The notes under the pieces are model-generated. The model made no database searches and was not told where the DNA came from. It was given only the letters and a program-made list of their open reading frames with translations. From positions 992,001 through 1,056,000 of the forward strand of contig NC_030997.1 of assembly GCF_000149955.1 (NCBI RefSeq): a stretch of DNA of 64,000 bases. The letters are read 5' to 3'. A program made the position numbers and the translations under genes. This document shows, one piece after another, positions 10,017 to 18,933 of the stretch. The stretch is from Fusarium oxysporum f. sp. lycopersici 4287. Its lineage: Eukaryota > Ascomycota > Sordariomycetes > Hypocreales > Nectriaceae. Every line of letters starts with the position of its first letter. Position 1 is the stretch's first letter.

Positions 10017-11977
10017 TTACACCCTCGTTCCTGTTGCCATCCTCTTGTAACTCGCCTCAGTCTTCTCACGGATCCTCTTCCCCCAGATCATCATTGGAAC
10101 ATGAAGAAATGCCATAGCCAATGCCCATAACCCCATGACAATCGTCATATTCTGCAGGCCTTGAGCATCAAGCCATGGAACAAGGGCGAACGAAATGGCA
10201 ATGCTGAAGGCATTGCGCATAAAGGCGACCCCGATAAATGCTTCTCCGGTGATCTGGTCAGTGTTAGATTACTTGCTCTTTGCGAGACTGTGTGACTACA
10301 TACCGCTTGATAGCTGTCGATGGTCACGCAAAGCGCAACATCACTCAAACCACCAAGGCCGAAACCGAAGATGGCGCTACCAATGCTGGGGTACATCCAA
10401 TGCATGCCCTATTGCTGTTAATTACTAGTCGCAATAAAGGTGAATCTCTGCATACCTTTGCTGTAGTGATACCGAACATGATAAAACCACCGCTCATACA
10501 AACTGCTGGGAAGTGGTTCAGCTGAAGTCGCATTTCCGGTTCGTAATACCCGTAGTTCTTTCGTGTGAACCAAAGAATAGCTCGATCGGAAATTGCACCG
10601 TAGGCTGAGCCCAAAATACAGCCAATAAATACTCCTAGGCTCATATTCCCAACCCCAACGGTACCGAAATTGTACGGTGGCTGTGTGAAAACAATAGAGA
10701 TGATTGACGCCTGAGCGGAGATCCAACAGAGGCAAAAGGCATACGTAAGGGCTGTGTACATGACGGCTGGGAAGCGGAACAAGATAACGACAGCGGTCCG
10801 TACAACGCCAAGTAAGCTTTCGTCGGTTTTTGTGACCAGTCGCATGCGTTGACGCCATGTGAGAAGCGGTATATCCGAGTTGATCCGATGTAATGGGGCA
10901 TTCGATGTTTCCAGTGTGATACATGTGCTCATCTCGCCACTCTGTATTTCCGAGATGTTGTCCTTCTTCGTGGCTGGGATAGGAGCTGGGACCTCGGAGG
11001 ACAGTTGCTGAGCTTCGAGACGCGGTATGTACTTGCTCTCCTCGAAGAAGAAACAGAAGTAGAGTAAAAGAGCGCTGTCAACTGCGGTAGTGATCCAATA
11101 GCAGCGCCTCCAGTTTCCATCCGCGGCCATGTATCCTGCAATTACGGGGCTCAGAAAGCTCTGCTACGCATCAGTAACGATTCCCCTGTCGGTATAGTTC
11201 TCGACTTACACCAATCATGACCATCACCATATATAGACCATTTGCACTACCACGTTGATGGACGAAATACAAATCGGCAATCTGTCCTCGGTCAGTGTGA
11301 TCCTTCTCAATGCATTATTCCCATACCGTCATCTCGACAATGCTCTCGTTGGTCGCACTAGCGAGTCCAAAGATCAACTGTGATACATATAATTCTGTCA
11401 GGGTCTTCATGCGCGCCGACCAGATGGCCATGGCAAAGATGATGGCTGTTGTAAGCAGGTACATCGACCGACGGCCATACTTCACCGCCGGAGGAATGAA
11501 TAGGATACAACCAACAGTGGTTCCGACATAGTTGAGGGCGTTCGCGTTGTTGAGTTGACCGTAAGACCATCCAAATTCCTGATTCCAGAGGACCCAGAAG
11601 ATAAGCGGCAAGGAAGTCCTGTCAACATTAGTGGCTCGTCGCTTTGTCGAAAGGCCTGGTAGCTCACTGGGTAAAGATGATGGCCGTGACTGCGAGAATG
11701 GGAACAAAGTTCATAGACTTGCGAGCACGCGACCAGTTCTAGCCAAGTCAGTCAAGTCAGTCGCATCGTATTTGGCGCATCCATACCAAAGGATCGTTGG
11801 GGTCGTCAGTCGGCATCGGTTGCTTCACCAATTGAGGCGTTTCGGCAAGACCATCCTCTACCATAAATATGAGCTTGTAGACGAAGCATCAGTATCTGTA
11901 TACTCACCACCAATGAGCCGGACCGTACCCGGCGGTGTCGTGAACTCTGGAGGAGCTGGTGCTACTTTTCTGGGCAT
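10017..11977 (-). CDS. Major facilitator superfamily transporter, 8 exons
   Basis: Predicted 540-residue MFS transporter. Exons 11977-11908, 11857-11787, 11738-11668, 11618-11327, 11281-11210, 11160-10456, 10408-10304 and 10253-10017; every intron is 45-50 bp with matching phase. The N-terminal cytoplasmic tail carries DPNDPLNWSRARK, the hallmark of the fungal DHA-like branch. The loop motif KYGRRSMYL matches the MFS loop 2-3 signature (G-x3-D/G-R-R). About 12 hydrophobic helices are visible, with a long cytoplasmic loop of about 60 residues after helix 6 (from EESKYIPR to the motif TWRQRMRL). Relatives export drugs or import small organic molecules; the substrate is not readable. The start is the first ATG before PRKVAPAPP. 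Convergent with the pseudogene ending at 9859. Confidence 0.88.
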
Positions 11978-12419
11978 GCTGAAAACGTGAAGAGTATTGC
12001 GAGAGAGATGTCTCTTGGGTGGGTTGAGCCGTGGACTTATGTGACTTCATATCAGCAACTGATCCAGGGGTTTTATGTAGGCGTTTATCTCTGTATTGGG
12101 ATGGCTAGTTGTGATACCTTCTGCGAGTCAAGATAGCATAGCCAGATGATCGATGCCTTGGGGCTCCGCCTACCTTATACGGTTAGTCTTATCGCTCAAG
12201 TCTGTCCAAGCAGCCGGGTTCATTGTCCGAAATGCGGGGGATGCGGGGAGCAATTGAGGATTAAGGTTGAGTAACTTGGTGAAATACGGCAATATTCTTG
12301 ACCAGTATCGAATTTTGACCGTTCTCTACTTCGGCACATATCGTAATTCAATGCAAGTTTTCTCTACCGAGTGGTCAACTCGGTGAATAATATGTCATTG
12401 AGTTGGCCTGGCCAATTGT
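11978..12419. other. Intergenic region upstream of the MFS gene
   Basis: About 440 bp between two minus-strand genes. Presumed promoter of the transporter. No gene, repeat or RNA recognised. Confidence 0.45.
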
Positions 12420-13073
12420 TTATCTGCCTACGTAAACATCTTCAACCTTCTGTCCAAGAAAGTTGGTCAATCGCCAGCAATCTATCACAGCAGCCCCTCC
12501 AAATGACTGCAAAGCTCCGATGGCCACGATACCATTCATCCAATTGTACGGGCTATTCCCTGCTGCTTCAAAAGTGATATGAGTAAAGTATTCCACCTCA
12601 TCCTGCGTATAATCCACGTCAATTGAGTCTGGTTGGGAGAACTCGATACCCGGTCCAGGTCGGAACAGCCCTCGAGCCTGTACAAAGATATGATGCCCGT
12701 CATTTGTTTTAATCGTGTACCTCGCATCTAGCTTGTAGTAAATCTATTCCTGTTTGTCAACACAGAATGCAGCGATGCATGCCGTAAACGCGCATACCTT
12801 CTTGGAATGAACTTGTTCTGCCCAATCAGCACCACTGTTCTCGACAAGGGTTCCCTCTATACCTGGTCCTTTTACAGTACCAGACTCAATACCTGCAATT
12901 GACCTCGTGATACCTGTGCCTTGTATGTTTTCGATATCGTAGCCATTTGTTGGATGCATCTTGGCAACAAGGCGATACACAAACTCCAACCCTGGAGCCC
13001 TCATTGCTGGCATGTCGGGGTAAAACTGGTTACCGGGGCTCGGCTGGGGGATAGATTGAGATGGCTGCGACAT
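12420..13073 (-). CDS. DUF3237-family protein
   Basis: Predicted 199-residue protein of the DUF3237 family (Pfam PF11578), a small beta-barrel family of unknown reaction found in bacteria and fungi. Exons 13073-12798 and 12743-12420; the 54-bp intron (gtatgc...gaatag) is well supported by phase. Visible: PGLEFVYRLVAKM near residue 28, GIEGTLVENSGADWAEQ, then after the intron DARYTIKTNDGHHIFVQARG and the C-terminal YFTHITFEAAG. No signal peptide. It is transcribed in the same direction as the neighbouring MFS transporter, 443 bp upstream of it, but nothing shows that they are functionally linked. Confidence 0.8.
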
Positions 13074-13500
13074 TGCTTCAACTGATGGAACAAGAGAAGT
13101 CTATTGGATGGCTGGATGCCTTTTAGTGCTATCTCTAAACCGTCGGATCTGTTAACCTTGTTTATATAACTACGCGTTTCTTACACAATGATGCTTGAGA
13201 TCTTCAAGCCTCTCATTGTGACATGTAGGGCAATCAATCCCGCGCGGCACTGCATGCTTTACTGGGTGTAGCGCAGACTTATTGTTGATCGTTACCGCTT
13301 TAAGTAGCCGGTGCCGCGCAAATCGAGGGTCCAGACCTTGTCTCTGGTTTCTGCACTAAACGAGACAGGGACGGGTTTCACGGGTTCCGACAATGCGATA
13401 GCCCGCGTGTTCATCGTTCGTAGTTTGTGAGAGAAAAAGTACAGATAAGACAGGCACAGAGTAGTCACCATCCCTCCTGGCATCGGTATTCCGGGTCATC
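13074..13500. other. Divergent promoter region between DUF3237 and GNAT genes
   Basis: About 430 bp between genes pointing away from each other. Short open frames on the minus strand here have no motif and overlap the start of the GNAT gene. I see no other element. Confidence 0.45.
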
Positions 13501-13746
13501 ATGTCAAAACTGACAAAGAGTTCGTGTAAAGTCCAGATGAGGCCACTTGGCCTGGGTTTGTTCGTCGGTCTCTCTCCCAGTCTCCTCAACTAACTATCTC
13601 CAGACTATGGCTCAATCAAGACTGCTGCTGAGATCATCAGCCTTTCTTTCGCCTCAGATCCCTTGATCCGTTGGCTCTCGCGTGACCGCTCTGGTCCTGG
13701 CTGGGAGACTTTGACACCTACCCTACAGCAATGGCAAGAGGCACGC

Positions 13747-13761
13747 CTGCGCGAGTATGCA
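13747..13761 (+). repeat. Target-site duplication, left copy
   Basis: Fifteen bases ctgcgcgagtatgca, identical to 14414-14428. They encode LREYA of the interrupted acetyltransferase and mark the insertion site. Confidence 0.9.
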
Positions 13762-14413
13762 ACTCTCCCCTGTAAAAATTCTTTCTTGGCACGCACTGTT
13801 AGTGCCGTGTTAGGAGCGGGATTTTCTGCAGGCCACGCGACCACACAAAACTGCGGGGATGCTATCGGCTCCCTAACAGCAGTTTTCAGAGAAGGAATTT
13901 TGGAGAGTTCGCCTTCTCTGACAACACCTTTGTCGGATCTAATGGCGGCACCTCAGAACCAGAACGCCTTAGATATCGGAGGACGATGCCCATGGCATCG
14001 GTAGCGACATCCTCCCGATCAACGACGCCGATTGCGATGGGTTTTTCTCCTTTGAAGGCAAGCCGCACCGTCGGCCTCTGATTCCTTCCCGAGGTTTTTC
14101 CCTGCCGCCGCGACAGTCGACTACGAGCTACAACTTGGTTACTGGAGATTGTGGACTGCGTCGGCAGATGTAGTGATGCGCGAGAGAATTCTGGTCGGTG
14201 GAAAAAGTTCGACAATAGATTGCCCCCGAACCCGCTGACGGGTGACGGGCTTGAGAAATACAGCACCTTTTGTGCCATTGGTATGCTGGATGGTGAAGGA
14301 AGCGGGGTTTCCCTGTACCTAGCTAGCTCAGCACGTCTTTTGCTCCAGTAGGAGATCTGGCTTCGTTACAGCCACCCAGACGAAAAATATACAAACAAAA
14401 ACAAACAAACAAA
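13762..14413 (+). mobile_element. Non-LTR retroelement insertion (SINE-like or 5'-truncated LINE)
   Basis: A 652-bp segment with no match to the surrounding gene, flanked by a perfect 15-bp direct repeat and ending in an A-rich simple repeat (caaacaaacaaa at its right end, from about 14381). A variable-length target duplication plus an A-rich 3' tail is the signature of target-primed reverse transcription, not of a DNA transposon or an LTR element. There are no terminal inverted repeats. Open frames on both strands inside (342 and 393 bp) show no reverse transcriptase motif. Size and tail would fit a Foxy-type SINE known from Fusarium oxysporum, but I cannot confirm the family, and RNA polymerase III boxes are not convincing. 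Confidence 0.82.
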
Positions 14414-14428
14414 CTGCGCGAGTATGCA
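14414..14428 (+). repeat. Target-site duplication, right copy
   Basis: Second copy of the 15-bp repeat directly after the A-rich end of the element; coding of the acetyltransferase resumes in it. Confidence 0.9.
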
Positions 14429-14992
14429 GTCCGTGGAATCGCCATGGAAGCCGTTACAATGGATGATACTCATAGAAGCGTTGGATCTTGCTTTTTGTTT
14501 CCCCCCAGGCCAGAGTATCGATGGCTGAACCCACTCTGGTGGCCGTCATATTTGCGAGTCTTATGGGACGAGTGGTGGGTCCAACCAACTGAACCATTCT
14601 GTCTAGAAAAGGTGATACAACTTGCACAAGTCAATAATAGCAGATCTAACAAGCCCTCACAGAGGATCGGAATCATGATGGAGTCTCATAACGATTTCGA
14701 GGAGAGGATCAAGAAGAAATACCCACCAAATTCTCTATACTACCTCGAGATTGCTGCGGTCAGACCTGATACGCAGGGAATGGGAGTTGGGAAAACGATC
14801 ATGCAATGGGTGGTGCAGAAGATAGGAGACTATCCATGCTATATTGAGTGTACAGACAGGAACAATGTCGCGTTTTACGTCAAGTATGGCTTTGAGGTTG
14901 TCGAAGAGAAGAAATTGGTGGATGAGGAGGACGCGATGCCACCAACGACTTTGTTTTACATGATTAGAGATACATTAGCACTCAAGAAGTAG

Positions 14993-15433
14993 TTTGAAAG
15001 TCGATATATAACGACAAGTTCTCTGAGGCTTTGTTTGTTTCTTATTTTAATGGTTGCACGTATCTTTGAAGTGACTTCTGAGAGGTGAAAGTTATGTAGA
15101 ATATGTACCGCTTATGTATATGTTATGCGTACGCTAAGCGGCTTCGAGTTAGTACATCCCTTATCATTTCGATGTTATCGTTATCGCTCTCCTTGATACG
15201 CGTATCTCGGCGCTAGTCTATTTCAGGTCTCTGCGATTCCTGATCTTGATCTTTCGACTCGTGGCGACGAGCTATCTCGGCCCGAGGCATCACCCCTCAC
15301 GTCAATCAAGACATTGGCAAAGACTTGATAACAATGGATGTCATCCTTTTGTCATAAGCTACGTTATAACCACATAATAATTAATCCACTTCGTGTTGTA
15401 ACCCCCTCCTGTCACGCGTTTGGTTTGACATCT
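14993..15433. other. Intergenic region upstream of the Zn2Cys6 gene
   Basis: 3' flank of the disrupted acetyltransferase gene and promoter of the regulator starting at 15434. No gene recognised. Confidence 0.45.
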
Positions 15434-16998
15434 ATGAGCTCACGGTCGCGACGCGGGTAAGTAACTTGACCATAACAACGACGATATCTCAAACTAAGAG
15501 CCTCCAGTTGCTGGACTTGTAAAAGAAGACACAAGAAATGTGACGAGAAACGACCCGTCTGTGATAGATGTGTCCAAGCGGGCATGACCTGCGAGGGTTA
15601 CAAAACACGATTGACATGGGGCTCTTCAGACACTGCAAGCTCAGCAGGGGGCGGTATAGTCTTGAAACCAATTCGTCCACCACGCCAGAAGAGTAAATCT
15701 CTGCGTAATAGAAGGGTAAGCCCCGCCGTTGAGACCGTGGGAGACCCGCTGGTGGACTTGCCCGACTTTTCGTCAATGCAGTCGCCAGATGAACTGGATC
15801 TGCTTTGCTTGCAATTCGAATCATTATCAGAAGGTTTACCAGACGAGGAAGTCTCACAGAAGCTTATGAACACTTGTAAGTAGACACAATGATACTTCAC
15901 GATCGATCATCTAACTAGGGTATAGTTACTACCATCGGATACCAGACGCTCACAGGTCGTGCCGGACATGATACCACGTTTAAATCTGACATTTTACCAC
16001 TTTGTGAAGATAGTATCTGTCTAAAGCACGCTTGCTTAGCGTATCAGGCAAGCCTTGATGTTGATACCAGTCATTTGACACCTCTCTACATGCAATCGGC
16101 TCTTTCAAACTATCTCAATGACTTGGAAAATCCAAGCATGTTGTGCCAGGATGTCACTTTGGCAACGGGGGTCTTATTATGCAGCGTTAGCGTAAGTCGA
16201 AATCTCACATTCGTACCAGAGCTATACTAATACTCGCAGATAAACTCACTATATATCTGGTCACCCCTGCTGAAAGGTCTTCACGGAGTCCTCCAAGCAC
16301 GTGAGCTGTTGAATGATCCACAGAGACCCCCCGTGGCAAACCATCTCCTTGAAGCTGTCGGGCTATTAGATATACCGTTCTTCACCCTGAACAGGATTAC
16401 ACCGTCACTGGAAATATGGAAATCCTATGTCCAACCACACAAACACTCCGGTATTGAACAAGTGTCAGGGATACCTTATAGTCTGATGAATTTGCTAGCG
16501 AACATGGACTCTACCACCATCGAACAAGATCTGTTGCAGTGGCCCGGAGAACTTGGCGATGAGTTCGCACAGATCCACCTCTGGGAAGCGTTTCGACTCG
16601 CCGGTATTCTTCACAGCCGCTGTCTGGCTGACCATCCCCAAGATCAAACAAATCCACCGACAGCCAAGGTTAGCACCGAAATATTACGCATGAAGGTATT
16701 TGCATCGATTCAAGCGATCATCGGAATCGGAACGTTCAACTTTCGACTCTCACTCGCCAGGGCCATATTATACCCTCTTTTCATAGCTGGCATTTTAGCC
16801 GAGAATGCCCAAGAACAGCAGCTGACCCGTGTGGCCTTCCAATACATAATGCAAAAGGGACAAGAGGGAACGGAGCAGATAATATTGGATATTGTGGCAA
16901 AAGTTTGGAAGAATGGAAAAGGTGGCAACGAAGCGTCTAAGTTGATGATAGCTACTGAGGCTACGGGGGAGCTGAATGCTGAGATTCATCTCTACTAA
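15434..16998 (+). CDS. Zn2Cys6 binuclear-cluster transcription factor
   Basis: Predicted 471-residue nuclear regulator. Exons 15434-15456, 15508-15875, 15926-16191 and 16240-16998; introns 48-51 bp. The zinc cluster starts right at the first junction, as is common in this family: C-WT-C-KRRHKK-C, then C-DR-C and C at residues about 9-36, with the basic KRRHKK between Cys 2 and 3. A basic linker (PPRQKSKSLRNRR) follows. The rest resembles the second fungal-specific transcription factor domain (Pfam PF11951): a helical region with LLCSVSINSLYIW, then LWEAFRLAGILHSRC near the end of exon 4. Its target is unknown; the adjacent convergent carboxylesterase (156 bp between stops) is a possible but unproven target. 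Confidence 0.85.
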
Positions 16999-17155
16999 AG
17001 ATTCGTAATTAGAGCGCCTCAGAGCCTAAACCCAATGATGCATTCATATCTGCACGGGCTCAACATACCTTGATGAATAACAGCAAAAGTCACAAAGATC
17101 AGGATGCTAGAGTGAAGAATGCGGAGATCATATCGAGCTGCCCCTTTGGTATCAG

Positions 17156-18933
17156 CTAAGCTAAGACTGCTTCCTTGATTCCGATAGCATCAGCGACTAC
17201 TGGTTCGGCCTTGATATCCTCACTAAACTGACGAGGTCTGTCCTCAAAAGTCCCCATCTTATCCCTCTTACAGGCAAGATTGTCAATAGCCAGTATGAGC
17301 TCTTCCAGCACACCCATATCAAGAATCTTCTGCATACGAGAATACTTTCGCACATTCTCATCCTCAACTTCCGTAACGACTTTGCTAGTCTCGTCTGGTC
17401 CAAACCTCATCCATTGATCACCATCGGCGACTCGAGGCCATGGATCTTTGCCGTAGGAGTAATCGATAAAGCTACCAGCCATAGTTCTTGCAAGCTTTTG
17501 CTGGCCTGGAGTCAGTCTCTCGTCGAAATTGAGAAAGACATATAGTAGATCGAGTGCGTGGTAGGCTTGACCCTTGTATATGCTATCATGAGTGCACACC
17601 TGGTCGAAGTGATAACCAAAGGTTTGCGGAATATCTGAACGGTGAACAGCGATCCAGTTGTGGATTTTGAAGACTGAATCGCCTGTCATGTCTTCGAGGG
17701 CTTTCAGAAGCTCCTCTTTCGAGAGATCAGGAGTGACGCCATAGAGATCAAGGATCTCATCAGTAGCCTTTTCACTCAAGAACTTATTCATGCCAGTTCT
17801 CCAAGAGTCAAAGGTCTCCTCAGCAAGATCCTCAGTGAAAATCATCGCCTCGTCAGTGGTATCTCCAACCATGTAGCTCTTAAGCCACGCCGGAGGTGAA
17901 GTGATACCGTTGGCGGTAGGTTTCGTCTTGTGAAAAACACCATCGTCGCATGGATTGCCCGTGGCGTTGAGGAGGCCCTCCACTGGGATCGTTGCAGCAG
18001 CGACGACAGCCTCAGGGACGTTTCGAAGCTGATCGAGAGCAGAAGGTGAGTCCGCATCAATACCAAGGTATCTCAACAAAGCGCGGTAATGCTTTTCGTG
18101 GTGCTCCAATGGCCAAGTCTGGACGGTGTTCAAATGACCAGACATGGCGATGGCGCGATGGAAGGGCGCCGGATTCTTAGCAGCGATGTGGTGAGACACG
18201 CTCATCCCTCCAGCAGATTCGCCGTAGATAGTGACGTTGTCGGGATCACCGCCAAAAGAGGCTATGTATCGATTCACCCAATGCAAAGCAACCTGCTGAT
18301 CGTAAAGACCAAAGTTCCCTACGCCTTCAAGACCATCGCGCTCTATATCTTGCTTGATTGCGGCCGATGCGAGAAAGCCACCGAGGCCGACACGATAGTT
18401 GAGGTTGACTGTGACAACTGGAGTGTTGCGGGCTGCAGCAAAGGTCGTCAAGTTGACGCAATCGAACACGCCCTTATTGGCACCGCCAAAAAGAAAAGAT
18501 CCGCCATGGATATACACCATAACGGGCAATTTCGCACCAGAGTCAGAGCCCAGTGTTGGTGTTGTGATGTTCATGACAAGGCAATTGAGTTCATCTTCAA
18601 TTGGCTCTTCAAAATGGGGCGCAATGTCAACTGGGATAAGGATATCTTCAGGTATATTGTACTCCGGCGGGTTTGGTGCGCTGGGTCTGTAAGCAGATTC
18701 AGCAATCATTACATAGCAGCGAACTTTGATCTTAATTACCCCAGCTTTGTCCCATCGTGAAAATCGTCAGGCCACGAAGTCCTGAGTTGTGAGCGTGTCC
18801 AACGCTTGGAGAGCGATGCGTAAGGAATGCCACTGAATTGGTGGATGTTGTTAGGGAAGCTCAGGCCCTTCACAACACCAAGCCCCTGAACGCTAAGCTC
18901 TGTAGTGCCGATCGGAGTTTTGCTGGCAGGCAT
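17156..18933 (-). CDS. Type-B carboxylesterase (alpha/beta hydrolase), intracellular
   Basis: Predicted 574-residue esterase of the carboxylesterase/lipase type-B family. Exons 18933-18740 and 18686-17156 with a 53-bp intron. Catalytic features: oxyanion-hole motif YIHGGSFLFGG, the nucleophile elbow GESAGGMS (Ser in G-E-S-A-G), an acidic partner region around TTDEAMIF, and a later His region (FGYHFDQVCTHDS). The length is normal. There is no signal peptide (starts PASKTPIGTTELSVQG), unlike the second type-B esterase at 53.6-55.4 kb, so it is probably cytosolic and may hydrolyse imported or endogenous esters. The start is ATG 18933; codons further upstream are open but lack a better ATG. Confidence 0.88.

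What the first reader, a model, noticed from the sequence alone, without database searches (positions are those of the whole stretch)
13501..14992. Acetyltransferase gene split by a non-LTR retroelement with intact 15-bp target duplication
The two halves of a GNAT coding sequence are separated by 652 bp ending in (CAAA)n, and the flanks carry a perfect 15-bp duplication. Removing the element plus one copy rejoins the frame exactly. Perfect duplication and undecayed halves indicate a recent insertion, so related strains may carry an empty site. It offers a clean example of gene loss by a SINE/LINE-type event.
Basis: seen in the sequence. Interest (0 to 1): 0.8.

Follow-up and report, generated by a model that had tools for sequence, protein, structure and literature searches.

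The report
Fungal acetyltransferase gene broken by SINE
A Fusarium acetyltransferase gene has been interrupted very recently by a copy of an abundant, known type of small mobile element, which shares its tail with larger elements that probably supply the copying enzyme.

Summary
Confirmed, with refinement. A 652-bp segment ending in an A-rich CAAA tail splits a GNAT gene; a perfect 15-bp direct repeat flanks it. Both halves align to uninterrupted homologues with exactly the five duplicated codons overlapping (17 of 21 clearly, 3 weakly, 1 not). The segment is a dispersed repeat: 133 exact 5' ends and 136 exact 3' ends in this 61-Mb genome. Of 62 fetched insertions with different flanks, 37 have a 621-bp body identical to this one and 21 form a second uniform subfamily; 60 of 62 have duplications of at least 10 bp, against 9 of 3782 mismatched pairs. 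Many copies start with an extra CA, which here also matches the target, so the true duplication is 13-15 bp. It is most probably Foxy, the known F. oxysporum SINE, but no published sequence was available to compare. Added here: its 3' end matches the 3' end of LINEs (20 of 46 windows read), 19 of them with endonuclease and reverse-transcriptase domains. I found no tRNA-like head. An ordinary recent insertion of a known kind, with a candidate SINE-LINE pairing.

The parts
13501..13555 (+). Probable exon 1 of the GNAT gene (MSKLTKSSCKVQMRPLGL)
   Evidence: Same 18 residues as the start of P0001; exon end inferred from that comparison
13556..13603 (+). Probable 48-bp intron 1 (gtttgt...ctccag)
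   Evidence: Inferred: P0001 joins MRPLGL directly to DYGSIK
13604..13761 (+). Upstream half of the interrupted exon (half A), including the first copy of the repeat
   Evidence: 96% identical to P0001 residues 16-71 (query began at 13594)
13747..13761 (+). Upstream copy of the direct repeat CTGCGCGAGTATGCA (its last CA may belong to the element)
13762..14413 (+). Inserted non-autonomous retroposon, full length (Foxy-type SINE, here called subfamily A)
   Evidence: 133 exact 5' ends and 136 exact 3' ends genome-wide; 37 of 62 distinct fetched copies identical over 621 bp
14231..14400 (+). LINE-related 3' region: two blocks, element positions 470-534 and 562-639
   Evidence: Both blocks matched by 20 of 46 LINE 3' windows
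14334..14382 (+). Predicted 3' RNA structure: outer stem CGUCU/AGACG around hairpins CUCC-AGUA-GGAG and UGGCU/AGCCA
   Evidence: Minimum-energy fold (the centroid differs); shared hairpin in alignment
14383..14413 (+). A-rich tail ending in (CAAA)n
14414..14428 (+). Downstream copy of the direct repeat
14414..14611 (+). Downstream half of the interrupted exon (first part of half B)
   Evidence: Matches P0001 from residue 67
14612..14662 (+). Probable 51-bp intron 2, read through in P0001, absent from P0002 and P0003
   Evidence: Inferred from protein comparison
14663..14992 (+). Last exon, with the matched part of the GNAT domain; stop codon included
   Evidence: PF13508 E=2.9e-7 and PF00583 E=8.9e-6 in half B

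Best explanation
A full-length copy of a young, high-copy, non-autonomous retroposon (most probably the Foxy SINE family of F. oxysporum) was inserted into the second exon of a single-copy GNAT gene. Mechanism, inferred: the element RNA is recognised through its 3' end and tail by the endonuclease/reverse transcriptase of a LINE clade that has a similar 3' end; the LINE protein nicks the target, primes reverse transcription on the A-rich tail, and repair of the staggered break gives the 13-15-bp duplication. Shown: the insertion structure, the repeat family and its target duplications, copies with shortened 5' ends, the LINE-like 3' end, uninterrupted homologues. Inferred: that this LINE clade is the actual helper, that the name Foxy applies, and that the gene is inactivated.
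For: Direct repeat and tail. Copies: 133 and 136 exact ends; exact 145-mers of the two subfamilies 67 and 57 times. Duplications of 10-17 bp in 61 of 62 distinct copies; control 9 of 3782. 5'-shortened copies L012, L014 and L011/L013/L015. LINE 3' match in 20 of 46 windows, best block 66 bits, against at most 28.3 bits in 200 shuffles and no minus-strand match at E 1e-3. 19 of these 20 LINEs have a PF14529 endonuclease match upstream of the PF00078 match on the same strand (not seen for L136), and 11 of 20 lie in open frames of 1253-1256 aa with no stop in the matched domain. Shared hairpin: C-G in 13, U-A in 4, U-G in 2 of 19 distinct rows, none broken. Uninterrupted homologues. Gene flanks single copy in this genome.
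Against: Young copies end in (CAAA)n, the LINEs read in (CATA)n or (CATAA)n; a LINE-like end with a CAAA tail was not found (0 exact matches). LINE identity in the shared blocks is only about 73-81%. 26 of 46 LINE windows did not match; most were cut at a fixed offset, and at least one (L142) looks cut off. In the consensus fold the SINE breaks 5 of 16 pairs; its second hairpin uses other columns. Fold energies are modest (SINE z -0.78; 49 of 200 shuffles fold as well) and the SINE's centroid structure lacks the three-stem shape. Published Foxy sequence not available.
Confidence: 0.88

Rival explanations
1. The segment is spliced out like an intron: splice signals in the element and the repeat restore a nearly full protein, so the gene is not lost.
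For: Four GT-AG pairs (loose motifs) keep the frame without stops; one, 13772 to 14429, would give a 246-codon half-A-to-end frame, three more than without the insertion.
Against: 35 of 300 shuffled elements give at least four such pairs, mean 1.4. Homologous proteins show no extra residues at the site. No RNA data were available.
Confidence: 0.07
2. The element is an internally deleted LINE (5' end plus 3' end of a LINE, as recalled for RIME of trypanosomes) rather than a SINE with its own head.
For: The 3' part is LINE-like. A repeat about 70% like positions 1-154 has copies about 4 kb upstream of two LINE RT domains on the same strand (coordinates).
Against: One of the two places was read (L182): it is a separate SINE-like element with its own flanking repeat GTAAAGCAGCATC, not a LINE 5' end. 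No LINE 5' end was read, so the idea is not excluded.
Confidence: 0.12
3. A DNA transposon or MITE made the insertion.
For: Short element, many uniform copies.
Against: None of the four inverted-repeat pairs found around the site joins the two ends; tail length varies from 20 to 49 nt and duplications from 10 to 17 bp; 5'-shortened copies.
Confidence: 0.01

Closest known systems
Foxy SINE family of Fusarium oxysporum (Mes et al. 2000, not held; known here from passages of PMC3599309 and PMC5063351)
   Same: Same host group; dispersed over core and accessory sequence; about 160 copies reported, 133/136 exact ends here; described as active. A review passage (PMC13253344, citing Sun et al. 2025, not read) reports a genome-wide expansion and an insertion that inactivated a copy of another gene
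   Different: Published sequence not compared. A figure legend in PMC5063351 calls Foxy tRNA-derived, whereas no tRNA-like head was found here
SINE-LINE pairs with shared 3' ends ('stringent' type; PMC5135761 and PMC3747384, search listing with start of abstract only)
   Same: SINE 3' end resembles the 3' end of a LINE, with a stem-loop in both
   Different: Tail repeats differ between young SINEs (CAAA) and the LINEs read (CATA/CATAA); dependence not tested
MgSINE of Magnaporthe grisea (passage of PMC5063351)
   Same: Fungal SINE of similar copy number (ca. 100)
   Different: 472 bp and described there as tRNA-derived; no sequence comparison made

Membership tests
LINE-mobilised non-autonomous retroposon | Target-site duplications of variable length | tested here: met
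   61 of 62 distinct copies, 10-17 bp; control 9 of 3782 at 10 bp or more
LINE-mobilised non-autonomous retroposon | A-rich or simple-repeat 3' tail of variable length | tested here: met
   20-49 nt in 61 copies
LINE-mobilised non-autonomous retroposon | No terminal repeats pairing the two ends, no known protein domain | tested here: met
   Repeat scan of 13300-15300; the two internal frames tried gave no Pfam match at E up to 1
LINE-mobilised non-autonomous retroposon | 5'-shortened copies occur | tested here: met
   Alignments begin at 286 (L012), 86 (L014), 328 (L011/L013/L015)
LINE-mobilised non-autonomous retroposon | 3' end shared with a LINE of the same genome | tested here: met
   20 of 46 LINE 3' windows match both blocks
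LINE-mobilised non-autonomous retroposon | Mobilisation needs that LINE's enzyme | not testable with these tools
   Needs an assay
SINE in the strict sense | Head derived from tRNA, 5S or 7SL RNA, with Pol III boxes | tested here: not met
   Rfam at E up to 10: one match inside the element, an snoRNA model far below its gathering score; no tRNA there; best A+B box score 10 of 14, reached by 298 of 300 shuffles, while two tRNAs of the window score 14. A very degenerate head could escape these scans
Foxy family | Sequence identity with published Foxy | not testable with these tools
   No paper in the library holds any of six 18-20-mers of the element (0 papers); original paper not held
Foxy family | High-copy SINE dispersed through the F. 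oxysporum genome | tested here: met
   133/136 exact ends; the listed places alone span contigs C1-C10; host inferred from the 97% match to an F. oxysporum protein
GNAT acetyltransferase | Acetyltransferase domain | tested here: met
   PF13508 and PF00583 above cut-off in half B and in P0001; substrate unknown

The most novel reading that the evidence does not exclude
Foxy-type elements are not tRNA-derived SINEs but LINE-tail retroposons with a head of unknown origin, mobilised by one clade of endonuclease-RT LINEs (frames of 1253-1256 aa) through a shared three-stem RNA structure at the 3' end; two master lineages have amplified side by side and have switched from the LINE-type CATA tail to a CAAA tail.
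Probability: 0.42. Interest if true: 0.5.

Novelty: new member of a known kind. Interest (0 to 1): 0.33.

Why it matters
It is a clean, recent gene disruption whose empty site probably still exists in other F. oxysporum isolates, so it can serve as a marker for tracing and dating lineages. The LINE match names a candidate helper for an abundant Fusarium SINE, which can now be tested directly. The gene itself is an uncharacterised acetyltransferase, so the effect of its interruption is unknown.

Tried and rejected
Internally deleted LINE: suggested by a head-like repeat about 4 kb upstream of two LINE RT domains; the one place read, L182, is an independent element with its own flanking repeat. 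No LINE 5' end was read, so this stays a rival.

Intron reading: in-frame GT-AG pairs exist, but 35 of 300 shuffles give as many.

Target-site preference: A is common at the first base of the duplication (35 of 61) and rare just before it (2 of 61), but choosing the longest repeat next to an A-ending tail produces this, so I claim no preference.

LINE with a CAAA tail: exact pattern not found. Published Foxy sequence: six 18-20-mers in no paper. Solved structures with sequence similarity to the GNAT: none at E 0.001. Of the papers, I saw passages of PMC3599309, PMC5063351, PMC12345182, PMC8176585, PMC7640661 and PMC13253344, and listings of the rest; I read none in full.

Mended on checking: an earlier count of homologues was split by alignment strength, the endonuclease claim was reduced to 19 of 20 LINEs, and the note that all 26 dropped copies were segmental duplicates was corrected to 24 plus two places fetched twice.

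Full report
What is there. The direct repeat CTGCGCGAGTATGCA stands at 13747-13761 and 14414-14428, around 652 bp ending in an A-rich CAAA tail. The sequence before it reads as the N-terminal part of a GNAT protein, the sequence after it as the rest, with the acetyltransferase domain (PF13508 E=2.9e-7). I searched half B alone, so that nothing had to be joined: 28 proteins matched among 59 candidates. Half A, compared separately, matched 21 of these 28. In 17 of the 21 the end of half A and the start of half B overlap by exactly five residues with clear alignments; in 3 (P0011, P0017, P0018) the same overlap rests on a 13-residue alignment of E about 0.4; P0019 has no alignment at the start of half B. 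The five residues, LREYA, are the translation of the 15-bp repeat. The best homologue, P0001 (F. oxysporum, 258 aa, a cluster of 50 sequences), is 96% and 97% identical to the two halves. Protein records cannot show DNA introns: the models P0011 and P0016-P0019 skip conserved coding sequence soon after LREYA, which I take for annotation choices but cannot prove. The net insertion of 667 bp shifts the frame, and the upstream frame stops at 14002-14004 inside the element. Both gene flanks are single copy in this genome.

The element family. The own genome (61.24 Mb, 71 contigs) holds 133 exact copies of the element's first 32 bases and 136 of a 31-mer near its end, against none for the reversed control patterns. 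BLAST scored only 40 of 257 candidates and listed 41 matches, so these are lower bounds. For study I took 88 fetched stretches: 8 from the best BLAST matches and 80 from the 100 places listed, taken in order as far as C7 where an exact 3' end also stood at the right distance; eight odd places were set aside and fetched separately. Dropping those with flanks already seen left 62: 24 of the 26 dropped lie on C3 and C6 and repeat other flanks there (segmental duplication), and 2 are places fetched twice. Of the 62, 37 have a 621-bp body identical to the window's, 21 share a second sequence 21 substitutions away, and 4 differ. Without the 8 BLAST-picked stretches it is 31, 21 and 4 of 56. Exact 145-mers specific to the two subfamilies occur 67 and 57 times. 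Requiring exact ends favours young copies; among the separately fetched places some are older, 94-98% identical.

Insertion signature. Of the 62 distinct insertions, 61 have a flanking duplication of 10-17 bp, median 14; L058 has none of 8 bp or more. With flanks of different copies paired as a control, 9 of 3782 reach 10 bp, against 60 of 62 true pairs under the same rule. The bases before ACTCTCC that lie outside the duplication are CA in 36 of 61, A in 13, other in 7, and none in 5. The window copy is one of the last five; in three of those five the duplication itself ends in CA. So the window copy's duplication is 13 to 15 bp. 5'-shortened copies occur: L012, L014, and L011/L013/L015, the last three with the same start.

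Candidate helper LINE. Reverse-transcriptase domains were found at 150 scored places of 211 candidates. I read 3' windows at 46 of them (6; 40, at a fixed offset). 20 of 46 match the element in both of two blocks, positions 470-534 and 562-639, at about 73-81% identity and on the plus strand only; the best block reached 66 bits, and 200 shuffles at most 28.3. L142 carries the terminal motif at the very start of its window and may be a further match. 19 of the 20 LINEs have a PF14529 endonuclease match upstream of the RT on the same strand, L136 being the exception, and 11 of the 20 lie in open frames of 1253-1256 aa without a stop in the matched domain. The terminal 74 nt fold, at minimum energy, in the SINE and in the three relatives folded, as an outer stem around two hairpins, but the centroid structures of the SINE and of L182 differ, and 49 of 200 shuffles of the SINE end fold at least as well. 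In the alignment of 23 ends one hairpin pair changes from C-G to U-A in 4 and U-G in 2 of 19 distinct rows, all still paired (1 of 500 shuffles does as well); the closing pair of the outer stem also changes on both sides once. The SINE breaks 5 of the 16 consensus pairs and forms its second hairpin from other columns. The structure is supportive, not decisive.

Tail and head. Young copies end in (CAAA)n, the LINEs read in (CATA)n or (CATAA)n; a LINE-type end followed by CAAA was not found with an exact pattern. Several older copies have LINE-type tails (L019/L024, L020/L023, the second copy of L025, the first copy of L182), so the tail seems to have changed within the SINE lineage. The head shows no Rfam match above chance, no tRNA, and no better Pol III boxes than shuffles (298 of 300 reach its score, while two window tRNAs score 14 of 14). 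T5 runs lie at positions 283 and 336, counted from the CA start. A related family (L147, L182) shares the head at about 70%.

What is known. Foxy is the SINE reported for F. oxysporum, about 160 copies in one strain (PMC5063351, passage), 32 copies on the pathogenicity chromosome and dispersed on core chromosomes (PMC3599309, passages). Several Foxy families are distinguished (Foxy2 and Foxy5 in a passage of PMC12345182). A review passage (PMC13253344, citing Sun et al. 2025, not read) reports a genome-wide expansion and an insertion that inactivated a copy of another gene. I therefore take this element for Foxy with high probability but unproven identity. That the host resembles the tomato strain 4287 is my recall from contig sizes, not a result. 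The listings and passages that I saw name no LINE partner for Foxy; only open-licence papers are held, the original Foxy paper and Sun et al. are not among what I saw, and no listed paper was read in full, so this is not proof of novelty.

Verdict. The event is ordinary for an active SINE family; what is added is the two uniform subfamilies and a candidate LINE partner.

Noticed in passing
L061 and 20 further loci (subfamily B): A second subfamily, 21 substitutions from the window copy over 621 bp, is just as uniform (21 identical of 62); ten of the differences fall at positions 45-102. L085 is intermediate.
   Followed up: partly
L182 101-780; L147 1-200 minus strand: A related SINE-like family with a head about 70% similar and a LINE-type tail, flanked in L182 by GTAAAGCAGCATC; 40 places scored of 54 candidates. 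Three copies on C14 start about 1329 bp apart (1344083, 1345412, 1346740).
   Followed up: partly
L025 (C7:1602900-1604800): A young copy sits directly next to an older one (97%) with a CATA tail, as if inserted at the older copy's own target site.
   Followed up: no
P0002 (F. oxysporum f. sp. phaseoli, cluster of 7 sequences): The protein model begins at the first methionine after the insertion site, as expected if that strain shared the disruption; it could equally be an annotation choice.
   Followed up: no
window 10345-12743 and 15476-18766: Neighbours by Pfam: an MFS transporter, a DUF3237 protein, a Zn2Cys6 transcription factor and a carboxylesterase. The window holds no second copy of the element and no tandem repeats at the default score.
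   Followed up: partly
L018, L022: Copies matching only positions 1-587 and 1-484 of the element; cause not examined.
   Followed up: no
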